Virus record (IMG/VR): IMGVR_UViG_3300044615_000030
Span: 1 to 26,421 of that record
DNA length: 26,421 bases
Strand: one strand, 5' to 3'
From: a virus
Position 1 is the first letter of the stretch; the number at the start of each line of letters is the position of its first letter. A program made the translations under genes and the position numbers. This document shows positions 2,753 through 21,856 of this stretch, piece after piece. Under the pieces are notes generated by a model. It was not told where the DNA came from. It worked only from the letters and a program-made list of their open reading frames with translations, and did no database searches.

Positions 2753-4231
2753 ATGCTGATGCCACTCAAGATACCAGCAGGCGTTTACCGTAACGGCACT
2801 GAATACCAATCAATGGGTCGGTGGTTCGGCGCTAACTTGGTTCGGTGGTTTGAGAACACTCTCAGGCCAGTTGGAGGCTGGCGCAAGAGGGCTAATGGAC
2901 AGATGTCAGGCACCTGCCGAGGCATTATCAATTGGCGTGACAACAGCTCAACCCGGTGGATTGTGGCTGGCACCAACACCAAACTGTATGTGATGAACCA
3001 AGCTGGGACGCTGAAGGAAATAACACCAACGATATTCACACCTGGTGCAGCAGATGCATCATTGCTAGTTGGCTATGGCTACGGAAACTATGGTGCATTT
3101 GCGTATGGTGTGGCTAGGCCAGACACTGGCGCAATCATCAACGCTGCCACCTGGTCAATGGACACTTGGGGTGAGTATTGGGTCGGATGCTGCAACAGCG
3201 ATGGTCAATTGCTGGAGTGGCAGCTAGGATTCACAACGCCAACGAAGGCAGTGGCAATTGTCAATGCACCCACCAGTTGCGCGGCGGTGATGACCACCTC
3301 TGAGCGTTTCATGTTCGCCTTGGGTGCCAGCGGTAACCCTCGGCTTGTGGCATGGTGTGATCAGGAGGACAACACCACATGGTCACCAGCCGCCAATAAC
3401 CAAGCAGGCAGCTTTGAGCTGACAACTGTAGGTTCAATCTTGGCGGGTAAGCGGGTGCGAGGCGTCAACCTGATATTCACTGACGTTGATGTCCACACCA
3501 GCAGCTACATTGGTCAGCCGTTCGTGTTCAGCTTTGAGAAGGCTGGCTCTGGTTGCGGCTTGATTGGACCCCAGGCTGTAGCGGCTATTGATACAGCAGC
3601 CATTTGGATGTCACGTTCAGGTTTCTGGATTTACGACGGTTACGTCAAGCCACTACCTTCTGACGTTGGCGACTATGTGTTCAGCAATATCAACTTGGAG
3701 CAGGCCAGCAAGGTTTACGCTGTCCACAACTCCAAGTTTGGTGAGATATGGTGGTTTTACACCAGCAGCGCCAGCATCGAGAATGACTCCTACGTCATCT
3801 ACAACTACCGTGAAAACCACTGGTCAATAGGCACCTTGGCGCGTCTGGCTGGGGTTGACAAGGGCGTCTTCAACAACCCGTTGATGGTCAGTGCTGACGG
3901 TTACATCTACGAGCATGAGGTGGGCTTTGCCTACGACTCACAGACAATTTACGCTGAGTCAGGTCCGGTAGAGATTGGCAATGGCGAGCAGATCATGCAG
4001 GTTCGCAAGGTGATACCTGACGAGTCCAACCTTGGGGATGTCAACATCAGCTTCAGCAGCCGTTTCTATCCAACCGACACTGAGACAACCTACGGTCCAT
4101 TCACCAGCGCCAACCCAACCGACGCACGTTTCAGTGGGCGCCAGGTCAAGATGAAGGTAACAGCCGATACTTTGAGTGATTGGCGGGTGGGGGTGATGCG
4201 CCTAGATGCGGTGCCAGCCGGGAAACGCTGA
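2753..4231 (+). CDS. Putative tail protein (beta-propeller-like, tail nozzle/stabilization candidate), 492 aa
   Basis: The protein begins MLMPLKIPAGVYRNGTEYQS; a second in-frame ATG at 2759 is nearly as good. It is rich in aromatic residues, Gly and alternating hydrophobics, with recurring blade-like strands (WIVAGTNTKLYVMN, GFWIYDGYVKPL, DGYIYEHEVGF), and ends VMRLDAVPAGKR. This strand-rich layout, the length near P22 gp10 (about 470 aa), and the presence of a P22-type portal in the same genome suggest a tail accessory or nozzle protein of a podovirus, but I see no decisive motif. The next gene starts at the last base of its stop codon. The virion role is likely; the exact part is uncertain. 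Confidence 0.6.
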   Translation: MLMPLKIPAGVYRNGTEYQSMGRWFGANLVRWFENTLRPVGGWRKRANGQMSGTCRGIINWRDNSSTRWIVAGTNTKLYVMNQAGTLKEITPTIFTPGAADASLLVGYGYGNYGAFAYGVARPDTGAIINAATWSMDTWGEYWVGCCNSDGQLLEWQLGFTTPTKAVAIVNAPTSCAAVMTTSERFMFALGASGNPRLVAWCDQEDNTTWSPAANNQAGSFELTTVGSILAGKRVRGVNLIFTDVDVHTSSYIGQPFVFSFEKAGSGCGLIGPQAVAAIDTAAIWMSRSGFWIYDGYVKPLPSDVGDYVFSNINLEQASKVYAVHNSKFGEIWWFYTSSASIENDSYVIYNYRENHWSIGTLARLAGVDKGVFNNPLMVSADGYIYEHEVGFAYDSQTIYAESGPVEIGNGEQIMQVRKVIPDESNLGDVNISFSSRFYPTDTETTYGPFTSANPTDARFSGRQVKMKVTADTLSDWRVGVMRLDAVPAGKR

Positions 4232-4800: not shown

Positions 4801-6543
4801 ATGGCTGACATTTCAATCCAAACCGCCTATGAGCGAGTCTTAGGCCGCACACCAAGTGCCGATGAAGTTGCCTACTGGCAGTCTACGTTTGGGAACAGCG
4901 TTGACCCTGTTGAACTGTCAACCTTCAGTGTGGCGGCGCAACCTGAACGAGCTGCTGCGCCCAATACAAATGACGCAGTGCGGAATATGTACATGGAAGT
5001 TCTGGGCAGAGCGCCTGACGCATCAGGGCTGCAATACTTCTCTGACCGTTTTGGGCCAACGGTTGAAACTGGTGAGTTAGACATCTTTAAGAACATGGCG
5101 GCTGAAGAAGTTGCTGCTAATGCCGCTAGGAATGCAGCACAACAATTAGCCGCACAGCAATTAGCCGCACAACAGGCGGCAGCAGCACCAGTAGCAGAGA
5201 CACAAGCACCAACGCAAGCTCAACTTCAAGCGGCAGCACAACAGGCAGAGGCAGCTAGAGCCGCAGCAATTACTCCCACCGCTACTGGGATGTCCATTGC
5301 AGACGCCTACCAACGGGTCTTGGGACGAGCGCCATCTGCCTCTGAGATTGCTTACTGGACATCTCAGTTTGGCCCTGGAGTTGACCCTACTGAGTTGTCC
5401 ACATTCAGTGTGGCGGCGCAACCTGAACGAGCTGCTGCGCCAACAACGAATGATGCTATTCGGCAGATGTACCTATCAGTCTTGGGGCGTGAACCTGACG
5501 CTTCTGGACTGAAATACTTCTCTGACCGTTTTGGGCCAACGGTTGAAACTGGTGAGTTAGACATCTTTAAGGGAATGTCTACGCAAGAAATCAACGCCAA
5601 TGCAGCCCGGAACGCTGGTACTACGACTCGCACAGGTACAACCACCACTGGTACTGTCCAGCCCATCACCAGGCCAACAACGCCAAGGCAAGTGACAGGC
5701 ACCCAGCTTGCACCAGCGCGGGTCACCAACACAGCCATTACGGGTACACCTTTTCGTAACATCTACACGCCAGCCACAACTCAGCAGAACGCGCCTACGC
5801 TGGCGCAAATCAACGCTGCATCTCAGTCGGCTAACCCGTACCAGTCCCTGATGGCGCTGACGCCTCAACGCACACTGTCACCAGCGTATGCAGCCCAAGC
5901 AGGGCAGACAGCCGCCAACACCAACCTTGGTGGCTTCAATTCAGCCGTGTACAACCCGGCAGCGACAACGACAAGGGCAACAACAGGAGGTGGCCTGTTA
6001 ACCACTGCGGAGTCACCGGCTGGTGGAGAGAATCCTGCTGCTACAACACCAGACTGGGGTACAGCACTAAGTATCGGACAAACATTGTCTGATTTAGGTC
6101 TGACCAGTATTGGCGATAGTTTGCAAGCAGATGCGCGTATGGGTATCAATTCCCAAACTGGTGCATATTCCGCAGAAGCACAGGCTCAACGTGCAGCGGA
6201 GGCGGCGGCAATGGCTGCAAACATTGCGGGGGTTGGTGTTGACGCCGGGGATCGTGATGTTGGTAGCGCAAGGGGCGACAGCGGCAATGATGGAGGTGGA
6301 GGCGCAAGGGCTGGCGGTGATCAAGGCGCTACAGGTGGTGGCTACATGGCAAAGGGTGGCATGGTTACGCCTCGACAAGTCAAGGGACGTAACCCACCTG
6401 GACCAGACGATGGCTACACCGGGCTAGATATTGGCGAGTACGTCATCCGCAAGAAGGCAGTGCAAAAATACGGCGCGAACATTTTCGAACAAATTAACGC
6501 AGGCAAGATTCCAGCCAAGCGTTTGAAATCTCTGTTGGAGTAA
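4801..6543 (+). CDS. DUF4214-repeat virion protein, 580 aa
   Basis: ATG 4801 follows GGAG (in aaGGAGttatagc). Two copies of a DUF4214-like pair lie at about residues 1-97 and 161-257, each with AYxRVLGRxPSAxExAYW followed by MYxxVLGRxPDASGLxYFSDRFG. An Ala/Gln-rich linker (residues 100-157) separates them. A Thr/Pro/Ala/Gly-rich low-complexity region follows to about residue 520. The C-terminus has a conserved phage element (GPDDGYTGLDIGEYVIRKKA, then YGANIFEQIN). DUF4214 helical repeats occur in secreted, S-layer and phage structural proteins. In the middle of the virion block this is most likely a structural or ejected protein. The repeats are partly identical in DNA, at a 480-bp offset (see findings). 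Confidence 0.75.
   Translation: MADISIQTAYERVLGRTPSADEVAYWQSTFGNSVDPVELSTFSVAAQPERAAAPNTNDAVRNMYMEVLGRAPDASGLQYFSDRFGPTVETGELDIFKNMAAEEVAANAARNAAQQLAAQQLAAQQAAAAPVAETQAPTQAQLQAAAQQAEAARAAAITPTATGMSIADAYQRVLGRAPSASEIAYWTSQFGPGVDPTELSTFSVAAQPERAAAPTTNDAIRQMYLSVLGREPDASGLKYFSDRFGPTVETGELDIFKGMSTQEINANAARNAGTTTRTGTTTTGTVQPITRPTTPRQVTGTQLAPARVTNTAITGTPFRNIYTPATTQQNAPTLAQINAASQSANPYQSLMALTPQRTLSPAYAAQAGQTAANTNLGGFNSAVYNPAATTTRATTGGGLLTTAESPAGGENPAATTPDWGTALSIGQTLSDLGLTSIGDSLQADARMGINSQTGAYSAEAQAQRAAEAAAMAANIAGVGVDAGDRDVGSARGDSGNDGGGGARAGGDQGATGGGYMAKGGMVTPRQVKGRNPPGPDDGYTGLDIGEYVIRKKAVQKYGANIFEQINAGKIPAKRLKSLLE
4924..5571 (+). repeat. Intragenic direct repeat, 480-bp offset, with two perfectly conserved patches
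   Basis: Within the DUF4214-repeat gene, 4924-4961 (38 bp) equals 5404-5441 exactly, and 5033-5091 (59 bp) equals 5513-5571 exactly. The sequence between and around these patches has diverged at many positions. All matches keep the same 480-bp offset, so this is a tandem domain duplication, with the two patches either under strong constraint or recently homogenised by gene conversion. Confidence 0.9.
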
Positions 6544-15680: not shown

Positions 15681-15887
15681 ATGGAAAACAAATTGACAGC
15701 AACGCAACGCCAAGAGCTTGCAGAACGAGTTGGCCTCAACGAACAGTGGCTCTACCAATGCCTTAGCGGTAGGCGGGACATGAGTCCTGCTGAAGCCATC
15801 CGAGTGGAGGCTGCGTCTGGTGGGACAGTCACCCGGCAGATGCTGTGCCAAGGGACATGGTCCAAGATTTGGCCTGAGCTGGCATGA
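15681..15887 (+). CDS. YdaS/Cro-like transcriptional regulator, 68 aa
   Basis: The protein is one helix-turn-helix domain: TATQRQELAERVGLNEQWLY, then QCLSGRRDMSPAEAIRVEAA, then SGGTVTRQMLCQGTWSKIWPEL. The ending GG-x-VTR-x(3)-[DCQ]-x(3)-W-x(2)-IWPEL is the hallmark of YdaS/Cro-type regulators of lambdoid and other phages. It should bind operators in the divergent region just upstream and repress or switch early transcription. I see no good Shine-Dalgarno before ATG 15681, so translation may be weak, and a small inverted repeat (AGTCT-GCT-AGACT, 15661-15673) lies in the leader. The resolvase gene begins in its stop codon. Confidence 0.85.
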   Translation: MENKLTATQRQELAERVGLNEQWLYQCLSGRRDMSPAEAIRVEAASGGTVTRQMLCQGTWSKIWPELA

Positions 15888-18383: not shown

Positions 18384-18560
18384 ATGAAACAAGAACAATG
18401 GAATTTGCTCCTCATTTCACTTGCGCGTCGGGTGTACGAGCTGGAGCAGAGAATAAAAACACTGGAAACTGCACATGGATGCAAAACTGATTGCGGCGGC
18501 ATTAGGACACTCAAGGCCAGCAGCAAACGGACATTGGCTGGCGTCCTGCCCAGTCCTTGA
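18384..18560 (+). CDS. Possible small coiled-coil protein overlapping the primase start, 58 aa
   Basis: ATG 18384 opens MKQEQWNLLLISLARRVYEL, then EQRIKTLETAHGCKTDCGGI, so the part before the primase start looks like a real charged coiled coil. The last 28 codons lie inside the primase gene in another frame and look unconvincing (basic, Ser/Pro-rich). No clear Shine-Dalgarno precedes it, and it starts only seven bases after the terminator. It may be a leader peptide coupled to the primase or a chance ORF. Confidence 0.35.
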   Translation: MKQEQWNLLLISLARRVYELEQRIKTLETAHGCKTDCGGIRTLKASSKRTLAGVLPSP

Positions 18561-20553
18561 CCACGGACAGGGGAATGGGGATAAGAACCCGTCTCTGTCA
18601 GTCAGGGATGAAGACGGGAAGCTGCTGCTGAAGTGTCACGGTGGATGTTCGCAGCACGACGTTTGGGCAGCGGTTAGGGACATGGGGTTGCTGCCTGAGA
18701 CATCAGAGTGGGTCGAGCCATTGGCTGGCATTGGCAAACGTCTCAATGGACACCATCCACCAACACCAAGGTTACCAGTACCTACTACACCTACTACACC
18801 AGTTCAGGTAGAACTAGAGCAGGAGTGGCTGTACGAGGATGAGTCTGGCGTCACCCAATTTGTGAAGCAGAGGTTTCGCACTTCAGACGCCAAGGGTAAG
18901 ACGTACAAGTTGCTGAGAGTTATGTCTGACGGAACCCGGCAGGCGTCAATGTCGGGTGCCAGGATCATCCCTTATCGTCTCGCTGATGTCTTGGCTGCTG
19001 GGTTTCACAGCAAGCCAATATTCATTTGTGAGGGTGAGAAGGCGGCTGATGCTTTGGCATCACTTGGCGTCTTTACTTGTACGTCTCACACTGGTGCCGG
19101 GAGTTGGCCTGCTGCCAACAGCGCCTGGTTCAAGGACTTGGCGGTGGTGCTGGTGCCAGACTTTGATGCACCAGGCTATAGATATGCATCCTTGGTAGCG
19201 GCTGCACTTCTTCCTATTGCGAAGTCAGTCAGACTCCTGGCGTTACCCGTGGGGCATACGGAGGATGCGTTTGAGTGGGTTGCGACTGGTGGTGATAAGT
19301 CTGGCCTGATGGCATTGTGCAAGGGGTTGGAGCCTATCTCTGATGCCTCAGAGATTGTTTATCTCCCACCACCAGCAGAAGAAGAAGACTCTGAGCCAGA
19401 CGCCGAGGAACTGGAGCCTGATTCTGAAGCACCAGAGCCAATCGAAAGTAAGATTCTCATTGAGGGTTGGGACACGATTCAGGATGAGCCTGTTGAGTGG
19501 TTGATTCAGGACGTTCTGCCTCGAAAGGGATTCAGCGCACTGTTTGGACCGCCAGGTTCATTCAAGTCTTTCGTGGCCTTGGACATTGCTCATTCGGTGG
19601 CTACTGGTAAGGCTTGGATGGGTAAGGAGGTGTCTGTACCTGGTGCCGTGCTTTACATCTGTGGTGAGGGGCATGGAGGCATTGGGGCAAGGATTAAGGC
19701 ACTGCGAGTGCATCACAAGACTGAGCCTGGCGCACCAGTCTATGTCATCAGGCACCAACTTAACTTACGCAGCTCAAAGGAAGACGTACAGCAGCTCCAG
19801 CTTGCCATCACCAACCTGGTGGCAAGGACTCAGGTCAGGTTTGAGCTGGTGCAGGTGGACACCTTGGCTAGAGCGTTTGGCGGTGGTAATGAGAATGATT
19901 CGTCGGACATGGGGTCGTTCATTGCCTCGCTATCAAAGATTCAGCGGCTTTTGGACTGTGCATTGCAGATCGTCCATCACGTTGGTAAGGATGTCACCAA
20001 GGGTTTGCGTGGACATAGTTCCTTGCTTGGTGCGTTAGATACTGAGTTGGAACTACAACGTATTAATGATGGGTTACAAGATAATAATATTGCTGGCGCT
20101 GGTAATATAACTATTACTAAGCAGAAGGATGGAAGTGACGGTGCTAAGTATGGATTTCGTATGGTCAAGGTTGACTTAGATAATACTAATTTAGGGTTTG
20201 AATCTACTCAGAGTTTGGCGGTGGAGGCTACGGATGTGGCTGTAAATGTGCAGCCAGTTGGCTTAAAAAGGACGGGTCAGGGTAAGCACCAGGGCAAGGC
20301 AATGGCAGCTTTTGTGGAGTCAATCAGGGAAACTGATCGCATTCAGTCCACCAAGTTTGGTCAAAAGAAGGTGACTTTGGTGTCTCTTTGGCGTGAAAAA
20401 GTGTGGCGTGGGTTGGGTAAAACGGGTGAGGTTAAGGGTCGAGATATCGAATTTAAGGCGGCTTGGAGGGCTGCAACCAACCTTGAGGGTGTGACGTTGG
20501 ACGGTGATTTTGCGTTCTTCACCACCAAGTTTGGCGAGAAAGAGCACTTTTAG
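18475..20553 (+). CDS. DNA primase-helicase fusion (CHC2-type Zn finger, TOPRIM, RecA-like ATPase)
   Basis: The 692-aa protein has a zinc finger at residues 25-58 (Cys25, His30, Cys54, Cys58 in CPVLDHG...KCHGGC), and a TOPRIM domain near 180-245 (FICEGEKAADALASLG, then VVLVPDFDAPGYRYA). After an acidic linker comes a RepA/AAA_25-type ATPase: Walker A GPPGSFKSF near residue 357, LYICGEGHGGIGAR, Walker B-like VQVDTLARAFGGGNEND near 458, and IVHHVGKDVTKG. It would prime and unwind phage DNA at the fork. No phage polymerase is seen here, so it probably works with the host replisome. The start follows GGAA. The 3' part uses more A+T-rich codons (20041-20240). Confidence 0.88.
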   Translation: MDAKLIAAALGHSRPAANGHWLASCPVLDHGQGNGDKNPSLSVRDEDGKLLLKCHGGCSQHDVWAAVRDMGLLPETSEWVEPLAGIGKRLNGHHPPTPRLPVPTTPTTPVQVELEQEWLYEDESGVTQFVKQRFRTSDAKGKTYKLLRVMSDGTRQASMSGARIIPYRLADVLAAGFHSKPIFICEGEKAADALASLGVFTCTSHTGAGSWPAANSAWFKDLAVVLVPDFDAPGYRYASLVAAALLPIAKSVRLLALPVGHTEDAFEWVATGGDKSGLMALCKGLEPISDASEIVYLPPPAEEEDSEPDAEELEPDSEAPEPIESKILIEGWDTIQDEPVEWLIQDVLPRKGFSALFGPPGSFKSFVALDIAHSVATGKAWMGKEVSVPGAVLYICGEGHGGIGARIKALRVHHKTEPGAPVYVIRHQLNLRSSKEDVQQLQLAITNLVARTQVRFELVQVDTLARAFGGGNENDSSDMGSFIASLSKIQRLLDCALQIVHHVGKDVTKGLRGHSSLLGALDTELELQRINDGLQDNNIAGAGNITITKQKDGSDGAKYGFRMVKVDLDNTNLGFESTQSLAVEATDVAVNVQPVGLKRTGQGKHQGKAMAAFVESIRETDRIQSTKFGQKKVTLVSLWREKVWRGLGKTGEVKGRDIEFKAAWRAATNLEGVTLDGDFAFFTTKFGEKEHF

Positions 20554-20556
20554 GGT

Positions 20557-20707
20557 GTTCACAAATGGGAACAAATGGGGAACAAATGGTAGACGATTTA
20601 TGAACAGGAAAGTGTTCACAAATGGGGGCAAGGGTATAACACTTGCCCATTTGTGAACAGTTGGGTGGGTGTTTTGAGGTGGGAACAAATGGAAGGGGAA
20701 CAAATGG
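20557..20707. repeat. Iteron-like cluster, seven copies of ACAAATGG
   Basis: The 8-mer ACAAATGG begins at 20561, 20571, 20582, 20618, 20685 and 20700, with an inverted copy (CCATTTGT) at 20647-20654. Most lie in a longer unit, either GGGAACAAATGG or GTTCACAAATGGG. The first three are 10 and 11 bp apart, one helical turn, as expected for cooperative protein binding on one DNA face. It fills the 150-bp gap between primase-helicase and the next gene, and its last copy contains that gene's start codon. Confidence 0.85.
20613..20659. repeat. 14-bp inverted repeat, large hairpin within the iteron cluster
   Basis: TGTTCACAAATGGG (20613-20626) is perfectly complementary to CCCATTTGTGAACA (20646-20659). 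After a GG bulge the stem continues with CAAG/CTTG (20629-20632 and 20642-20645), leaving a 9-nt A/T-rich loop (GGTATAACA). It could be a cruciform, an mRNA leader structure or a single-strand replication start. There is no following T-run, so it is not a normal terminator. Confidence 0.8.
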
Positions 20708-21354
20708 CAAAAGGTAAAACATTGGTGGTGGAGGCTACGCGCTATCCGTTGGATGAGTTCACGGTGAAGGCTGAGTCTTTGGTGGCTAGGTTGGAGCGGG
20801 TGAAGAATGACCATGAGGCTAGGTGGGGAATTAGGCGTATTGAGATGCTGGTGGATTCCAGCTTGAGGTTGAGGTTGGAGCAGCAGATGGAGAGGGTCTT
20901 CAATGCACAGCAGGAGAGGGACATCGAGAAGATGGAGAAGGCGGTCAACGGGATGGTTAAGGGGTTTGGTGTTCTTGACCAGTGGGCATTAGATAATAAT
21001 ATTGAGCAGCCGAGTATTAATGCAGTGGAGTGGGTTATGCAAGACAAGAGTGTGATGGTGGTGGTCCAGACTCACGCTGATGCAATATATTATCAACAGT
21101 TTCGGCCTGATGTTGGTAATAGGCATATATGGTCAATGGAGGAGTTAGAGTTATTATTGCAGTCAGATATTATTAAGGATATTATTAGGGCAAAGGCGTT
21201 ACTCCCAGGCACAAGGATGGTACAGGTGACGCCAGGTGGTAAGACAGGGTTTGATGACTGGCCTGATGCTGACGTTGACCTGAGCGGGGGAATCAAGGAG
21301 CCTTTGTTCAACTTTGAACACGCAAGGATGATGGGTGGCGTTAGGAGCCGTTAA
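20704..21354 (+). CDS. Hypothetical protein downstream of iterons, 216 aa
   Basis: The chosen ATG 20704 (MAKGKTLVVEATRYPLDEFT) follows AGGGGAACAA; the longer in-frame ORF from 20653 translates the repeats and is unlikely. Residues 20-100 are a charged, helical, coiled-coil-like region (ESLVARLERVKNDHEARWGI; LRLEQQMERVFNAQQERDIE). The C-terminal part has WSMEELELLLQSDIIKDIIR and a basic end. No TM and no recognised family. Its start codon lies in the last iteron and the small terminase follows, so it could bind these repeats or belong to DNA packaging; both are inference. Confidence 0.7.
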   Translation: MAKGKTLVVEATRYPLDEFTVKAESLVARLERVKNDHEARWGIRRIEMLVDSSLRLRLEQQMERVFNAQQERDIEKMEKAVNGMVKGFGVLDQWALDNNIEQPSINAVEWVMQDKSVMVVVQTHADAIYYQQFRPDVGNRHIWSMEELELLLQSDIIKDIIRAKALLPGTRMVQVTPGGKTGFDDWPDADVDLSGGIKEPLFNFEHARMMGGVRSR

Positions 21355-21436
21355 AATCGACTCAGGTGGCATCAAAGGTACAGAGTGGTACTTGGGGTGC
21401 TTGGTTCAACGATAGACGATTGTGGAGCGTTTAAAG

Positions 21437-21856
21437 ATGTATGTGAAGCGGAAGGCAGACATCGCCATGCTGGAGTCAATCGACAAGGAAATCGTCTTTT
21501 CGATGATCGAGGTGGGCAAGTCAATTGCTAATGTCTGCATTGAATTGGGCATTAGCAAGCGTGCGCTTGAGACTTGGATTGAAGATAACGGTTATGAGCC
21601 GGATATACTACGCGCACGCGTGCGTGCTGCCGATATGATGGCTTGCGAGACTGTGGAGATAGCCGACACCATCTCCGACGATAACCCGAGCAAGCCGTTG
21701 CACCGCATCAGGACGCGACAGTGGCTGGCCGAAAGGTGGGACGCCAAGACGTACGGCGCGAAACAGGCAGCGGTGACGGTCAACATAGGCAACCTGCGCC
21801 TGGACGCCTTGCGCCAGCTTGAGGTGGTTGAGGACTTATCCACAGGCGAAACGTAG
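21437..21856 (+). CDS. Terminase small subunit-like protein, 139 aa
   Basis: ATG 21437 has GGAG nine bases upstream; an in-frame GTG at 21422 is the alternative (144 aa). The N-terminal half carries a helix-turn-helix (SIANVCIELGISKRALETWI), then GYEPDILRARVRAADMMACE, and the typical small-terminase segment PLHRIRTRQWLAERWDAKTY. The C-terminus ends in LRQLEVVEDLSTGET. Small terminases of this Sf6/P22-like type bind the pac site and start packaging. One perfect DnaA box lies inside its last codons (21836-21844). TerL follows after an unusual 375-bp gap. Confidence 0.85.
   Translation: MYVKRKADIAMLESIDKEIVFSMIEVGKSIANVCIELGISKRALETWIEDNGYEPDILRARVRAADMMACETVEIADTISDDNPSKPLHRIRTRQWLAERWDAKTYGAKQAAVTVNIGNLRLDALRQLEVVEDLSTGET

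What the first reader, a model, noticed from the sequence alone, without database searches (positions are those of the whole stretch)
20557..20707. Seven-copy iteron array after the primase-helicase gene
Six direct and one inverted ACAAATGG copies lie in 150 bp. The first three have 10- and 11-bp spacing, matching one DNA turn. The array ends on the start codon of an uncharacterised gene. This looks like a site for cooperative binding of a phage replication or copy-control protein, and the encoded 216-aa protein is a candidate binder.
Basis: partly seen in the sequence, partly recalled or inferred. Interest (0 to 1): 0.7.

Follow-up and report, generated by a model that had tools for sequence, protein, structure and literature searches.

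The report
Phage replication origin with swappable recognition cassette
The repeats just after this phage's primase-helicase gene are most likely its replication origin, and in relatives the repeats and the last ~100 amino acids of that protein change together as one swappable lock-and-key unit while the genes on either side stay the same.

Summary
The array is real: 7 exact ACAAATGG copies in 147 bp (200 shuffles: at most 4), plus one degenerate inverted copy and a strong hairpin (z -7.4) whose arms are an inverted iteron pair. It is conserved. Of 132 relatives, 120 have at least 4 copies of a 7-mer directly after the primase-helicase gene, but the unit differs between groups (GGTAACA, GCGACAA, GGAGACA, ATCGGAA, GTATGCA...). 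Unit sequence tracks only the last ~100 residues of the primase-helicase, predicted as a winged helix: partial rank correlation 0.82, against 0.08 for the downstream 216-aa protein and 0.07 for TerS. Six near-identical genome pairs differ by a ~500-bp cassette (C-terminal domain + array). Cultured roseophages repeat the pattern independently: CRP-823 and CRP-821 share 97% of the helicase body, have 71% identical C-terminal domains, and carry CTACAAA versus GTATAAA in 10-11 copies each, around the same hairpin core. So the likely binder is the primase-helicase itself, not the 216-aa protein. Best reading: an iteron-plus-hairpin origin recognised by a Toprim / RepA-helicase / winged-helix initiator, working like SaPI Rep/ori, P4 alpha and IncQ RepA/B'/C. 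No binding or replication was tested. New variant of a known kind.

The parts
18475..20553 (+). primase-helicase, 692 aa: N-terminal zinc-finger/Toprim primase region, RepA-like (AAA_25) helicase, C-terminal domain; proposed initiator
   Evidence: Pfam AAA_25 E 1.7e-39; PHROGs primase families; weak Toprim; RSF1010 RepA 1g8y E 8e-5
20224..20550 (+). C-terminal domain (last 109 residues), predicted winged helix; proposed iteron reader
   Evidence: AlphaFold2 core pLDDT about 80-90, winged-helix order of elements; covariation with the array 0.82 partial, localised to residues 601-670
20561..20589 (+). three tandem direct iterons ACAAATGG at 20561, 20571, 20582
20594..20601 (-). degenerate inverted iteron (CGATTTAT), exact ACAAATCG in 80%-identical relatives
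20612..20659 (.). hairpin; outer arms hold iterons 20618-20625 (+) and 20647-20654 (-), distinct inner stem and apex (core)
   Evidence: inverted repeat, folding z -4.9 for the whole array and -7.4 for the hairpin, core conserved with protein body lineage
20685..20707 (+). two further direct iterons at 20685 and 20700; the last overlaps the ATG of the 216-aa ORF
20704..21354 (+). 216-aa protein of unknown function; conserved neighbour, not the specificity partner of the array
   Evidence: no Pfam or PHROGs family; partial correlation 0.08

Best explanation
The array is the phage's replication origin. The primase-helicase binds it with its C-terminal winged-helix domain, reading the iterons as several copies along the DNA and as an inverted pair in the arms of the hairpin. 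This places the RepA-like helicase ring on the DNA; unwinding exposes the hairpin core, near which the fused primase makes the first primer, and a polymerase (probably the host's) extends it. Shown by comparison: array conservation, C-terminal-domain/iteron covariation, cassette exchange, the core kept while the iterons change, one array per genome. Predicted: winged-helix fold, primase and helicase activities. Inferred: binding, origin function, priming at the hairpin, host polymerase.
For: 120 of 132 relatives have at least 4 copies of a 7-mer 3' of the gene, with 37 C-terminal-domain clusters. In 1078 close pairs the partial rank correlation of array similarity is 0.82 with the C-terminal domain, 0.08 with the downstream protein and -0.07 with the helicase body. 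A sliding window localises it to residues 601-670 (rho 0.77-0.80), falling to 0.11 in the first 40 residues downstream. Chimera pairs: mostly 85-100% DNA identity up to -400, about 26-78% from -350 to +150, then 86-100%. Hairpin core stays similar (cosine 0.40-0.61) in pairs whose iterons share almost nothing. Independent replicate in cultured roseophages. One array per 36.9-kb genome unit. The exact double iteron was found only in contigs known to carry the helicase, 16 of 16 stretches. RepA homology. Precedents: PMC7581432, PMC8263062, PMC4234260.
Against: No binding, unwinding or replication assay exists. No strong AT-rich melting element in the array (45% GC; lowest 40-bp stretch 32.5% GC, in the lowest 1.7% of the window) and no DnaA box within it. 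No GC-skew switch at the array. Foldseek support for the winged helix is weak (E 0.3-1). Covariation argues for recognition of the array by the domain, not that the function is replication.
Confidence: 0.78

Rival explanations
1. Operator or copy-control site: the primase-helicase C-terminal domain binds the array to regulate transcription of the downstream 216-aa, terminase and structural genes, or its own dosage, and replication starts elsewhere.
For: The array sits directly in front of the packaging and structural genes; the last iteron overlaps a start codon in the window; all covariation data fit a regulatory target equally well.
Against: No sigma-70-like promoter in the region, though phage promoters may differ; the start-codon overlap is absent in distant relatives; a helicase-fused binding domain and a hairpin core kept apart from the iterons suit an origin better.
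Confidence: 0.13
2. Packaging (pac) site bound by the small terminase encoded two genes downstream.
For: TerS gene starts about 0.7 kb downstream (window 21422).
Against: TerS varies 75-100% among phages with identical arrays; partial correlation of TerS with array given the C-terminal domain is 0.07.
Confidence: 0.03
3. The 216-aa protein is the binder.
For: Adjacency; array ends on its start codon.
Against: Up to 99% identical across phages with unrelated units; partial correlation 0.08; the match to array similarity drops to 0.11 in its first 40 residues.
Confidence: 0.02
4. RNA-level element: the hairpin acts in the transcript as terminator, attenuator or translation control, and the repeats are by-products.
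For: Strong hairpin in the transcribed strand.
Against: No terminator-like site, no Rfam match; concerted change of all direct copies together with a DNA-binding-like domain is not expected.
Confidence: 0.04

Closest known systems
SaPI/PICI Rep-ori and SCCmec Cch2 (PMC7581432, PMC6092414)
   Same: Initiator helicase whose C-terminal domain binds short iterons in an origin directly downstream of its own gene
   Different: Helicase here is RepA-like, not DUF927 or D5/SF3; one array with a hairpin rather than two iteron sets flanking an AT-rich stretch
Satellite phage P4 alpha protein with ori1/crr (as described in PMC4234260; two-site layout from own knowledge)
   Same: One polypeptide with Toprim primase, helicase and winged-helix domain binding origin repeats
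   Different: P4 alpha has an SF3 helicase (own knowledge); P4 uses two sites; only one array per genome here
IncQ plasmid RSF1010 RepA/RepB'/RepC with iterons and ssi stem-loops (PMC4234260)
   Same: RepA-family helicase (1g8y), iterons plus a stem-loop that could be a priming site
   Different: Functions fused in one protein; one hairpin, with arms built from iterons
Archaeal plasmid pRN1 ORF904 and phage BIP-1 (PMC4234260)
   Same: Primase-helicase-winged helix protein with a structure-conserved, sequence-variable stem-loop 3' of its gene as putative origin
   Different: Archaeo-eukaryotic primase and SF3 helicase; no iterons in pRN1
V. cholerae PLE RepA/ori (PMC8263062)
   Same: Initiator DNA-binding domain and origin covary, swap as modules, and replicate only as cognate pairs in experiments
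   Different: RepA_N domain at the N-terminus; no helicase or primase predicted in the protein (PMC7145576)

Membership tests
Iteron origin with self-encoded initiator | Multiple direct repeats within 100-200 bp | tested here: met
Iteron origin with self-encoded initiator | Cognate initiator DNA-binding domain | tested here: inconclusive
   supported by covariation only; binding itself not testable here
Iteron origin with self-encoded initiator | AT-rich unwinding element | tested here: inconclusive
   45% GC overall, 32.5% at lowest
Iteron origin with self-encoded initiator | Drives autonomous replication | not testable with these tools
   needs experiment
SaPI/PICI Rep-ori | Repeat region directly downstream of the rep gene, matched to its C-terminal domain | tested here: met
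   comparative evidence; binding untested
SaPI/PICI Rep-ori | DUF927 or D5/SF3 helicase | tested here: not met
   AAA_25/RepA instead
SaPI/PICI Rep-ori | Two iteron sets flanking an AT-rich region | tested here: not met
P4 alpha | Toprim primase | tested here: met
   weak Pfam Toprim; NCBIfam PRK07078 to residues 113-286, below its curated cut-off; PHROGs DNA primase; conserved EGEKAAD and PDxDxPG
P4 alpha | SF3 helicase | tested here: not met
P4 alpha | Second repeat site in the genome | tested here: not met
   one array per genome unit
IncQ replication system | RepA-family helicase | tested here: met
IncQ replication system | Separate RepC initiator and RepB' primase | tested here: not met
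   primase and helicase regions and the C-terminal domain are in one ORF
IncQ replication system | ssi-type priming hairpin | tested here: inconclusive
   hairpin present; priming untested
pRN1-type stem-loop origin | Sequence-variable, structure-conserved stem-loop 3' of the primase-helicase-winged helix gene | tested here: met
pRN1-type stem-loop origin | Archaeo-eukaryotic primase plus SF3 helicase | tested here: not met

The most novel reading that the evidence does not exclude
A bipartite origin-identity system: a constant hairpin core matched to the constant primase-helicase body, and a swappable iteron set matched to a swappable C-terminal domain, with some 35 allele clusters in one environmental phage group, diversified by selection for origins that competitors cannot use or attack (superinfecting relatives, satellites, or origin-directed nucleases such as Odn of ICP1).
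Probability: 0.35. Interest if true: 0.72.

Novelty: new variant of a known kind. Interest (0 to 1): 0.58.

Why it matters
It gives a precise origin prediction for a large uncultured phage group and for cultured roseophages, and a ready natural cross test (CRP-811/823 against CRP-821/831) of how an initiator domain and about ten repeat copies change specificity together without losing function. If the cassette is swapped under conflict, origin identity becomes another arms-race surface. The domain/array pairs are also candidate orthogonal replicons.

Tried and rejected
216-aa protein as binder: rejected by covariation. TerS/pac: rejected. RNA element: no Rfam hit, no terminator, no promoter. 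Origin-stealing satellites: the exact window double iteron was found only in contigs already known to carry the helicase. Structure of the 216-aa protein: single-sequence model unusable, pLDDT 37. PDB sequence search with the C-terminal domain: nothing meaningful; Pfam on the 67 domains: nothing above noise. Across all 6786 pairs the covariation is weak (partial 0.09) because array similarity saturates at zero between distant lineages; the signal is in close pairs. No relative above 60% identity in the phage collection and only distant ones in bacterial genomes, so the host is unknown. GC skew uninformative. The hairpin apex often reads GTCTWA or CTTWA, but the window's does not; no primase trinucleotide is claimed. 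The core-hairpin scan was not analysed further.

Full report
Observation. The array is as described. Six direct and one inverted ACAAATGG lie in 20561-20707, no cluster like it arises in 200 dinucleotide shuffles (7 copies against at most 4), and nothing similar exists in the rest of the window. An eighth, degenerate inverted copy lies at 20594-20601. The fourth direct and the inverted copy are in the arms of a hairpin (20612-20659) with its own inner stem.

Genome context. The window is a 26.4-kb virus record. A 97%-identical relative, IMGVR_UViG_3300034068_000046, carries the array at both ends 36,910 bp apart, so the genome unit is about 36.9 kb with one array; elsewhere only single ACAAATGG matches occur. 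Genes upstream are a RuvC-like resolvase, an exonuclease, an unassigned 195-aa protein in the position where roseophage relatives have an annotated ssDNA-binding protein, and the primase-helicase; downstream are the 216-aa protein, small and large terminase and an SU10-like portal. None of the ten further proteins tested from the relative's genome is a DNA polymerase; that search was not exhaustive.

Relatives. Four scans gave 132 distinct loci with complete gene end and intergenic DNA, and 37 C-terminal-domain clusters at 75% identity. 120 of 132 have a 7-mer present at least four times within 260 nt of the helicase stop. Of the other 12, seven have three copies at most per 7-mer but are mostly visible arrays; in L151, L155, L164 and L165 the reading frame runs into the array; the distant L168 has none visible. 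The unit differs greatly between groups: ACAAATGG, TACAAATSG, GGTAACA, GGTTACA, GCGACAA, GGAGACA, ATCGGAA, ATCAGAA, ACGGAAT, TACGCAA, GTATGCA, GGTCTAC and others.

Which protein goes with the unit. Among 1078 pairs with similar downstream protein (>60%) and helicase body (>70%), array k-mer similarity correlates with the helicase C-terminal domain at 0.82 after removing body and downstream protein; the downstream protein itself gives 0.08 and the body -0.07. Binned, array cosine is 0.00 for domain identity below 35%, 0.03 at 35-50%, 0.17, 0.29, 0.57, and 0.88 above 90%. Exonuclease, 195-aa protein and TerS give 0.06, -0.02 and 0.07 given the domain; TerL gives 0.22 on fewer pairs. A sliding window along the helicase shows rho at or below 0.39 to residue 580, then 0.58, 0.80 and 0.77, and 0.11 in the first 40 residues of the next gene. 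Pairs are not independent, so these are effect sizes; none of 200 label permutations of the all-pairs statistic reached the observed value.

Cassette exchange. Six chimera pairs (such as L097/L124 and L128/L126) are mostly 85-100% identical in DNA to about 400 nt before the helicase stop, about 26-78% from there to 150 nt after it, and 86-100% again within the downstream gene. Domain and array differ as one block of about 500 bp. Adjacency alone does not explain it, because the equally adjacent downstream gene does not covary and the copies within an array carry the same altered unit.

Two-part origin. In those close pairs the hairpin core stays similar (cosine 0.40-0.61) while the iterons share almost nothing (0.00-0.03); between distant helicase bodies core similarity is 0.11. 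For example CGAGAGTCT..AGACTCG stays with iterons GGTAACA, GCGACAA, GGAGACA and ATCGGAA. Within close pairs the core shows only weak ties to either body (0.19) or domain (0.23), so the claim is that the core is kept across the swaps. That the protein body (primase or helicase) reads the core is inference.

Independent replicate. Cultured roseophages CRP-811, -821, -823 and -831 (PMC12629253, in whose main text the words repeat, intergenic and origin of replication do not occur) have the same gene order around the helicase. CRP-811/823 (domain 98% identical) carry CTACAAA x11; CRP-821/831 (99%) carry GTATAAA x10; yet CRP-823 and CRP-821 share 97% of the helicase body and only 71% of the domain. 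All four keep the hairpin core AACCCTTTAGGGTT. Burkholderia phage BcepGomr shows a similar layout after its RepA helicase. Downstream DNA of MW202711 and of Caulobacter phage GB2A shows none by eye.

Protein. The helicase region is RepA-like: Pfam AAA_25 and RSF1010 RepA 1g8y as sole PDB match (E 8e-5). The primase region is supported by PHROGs, weak Toprim matches and the conserved EGEKAAD and PDxDxPG motifs. The C-terminal domain models with core pLDDT 79-90 in winged-helix order; nearest folds are CRP/FNR proteins and the Rok DNA-binding domain, at weak E-values, and among viral models Toprim/AAA phage proteins.

Mechanism and precedent. [quoted passage not shown] pRN1 needs a stem-loop 3' of its primase-helicase-winged helix gene, and the same paper describes P4 alpha and RSF1010 (PMC4234260). 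PLE shows the same covariation of initiator domain with origin, and cognate-only replication, by experiment (PMC8263062). The present system combines these features in a different protein architecture. I therefore call it a new variant of a known kind, with the origin function inferred, not shown.

Noticed in passing
L151, L155, L164, L165 (helicase 3' end): The helicase reading frame runs through the iterons, so the repeats are translated (...IRSDQKSDASDDQKSESETR...). Possible natural lesion or coding origin.
   Followed up: partly
window 21422-21856 and relatives: Terminase small subunit occurs in two forms (about 75% vs 99% identity) among phages that are about 97% identical in the helicase: another allele-swap locus.
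   Followed up: no
L283:11958-12872: A relative of the window phage carries a DNA methyltransferase (phrog_363) upstream of the resolvase-like ORF.
   Followed up: no
window 15681-15887: Small HTH protein resembling YdaS / phage repressor, in front of the RuvC-like gene.
   Followed up: no
L289 (BcepGomr) about 3698-3850; L288 and L292 3' of the helicase: Cultured phages with repeat arrays plus hairpin after a RepA-type helicase, not annotated in the records: likely origins and good experimental systems.
   Followed up: partly
window 4801-6543: 580-aa protein with two DUF4214-like repeats and a long low-complexity middle.
   Followed up: no
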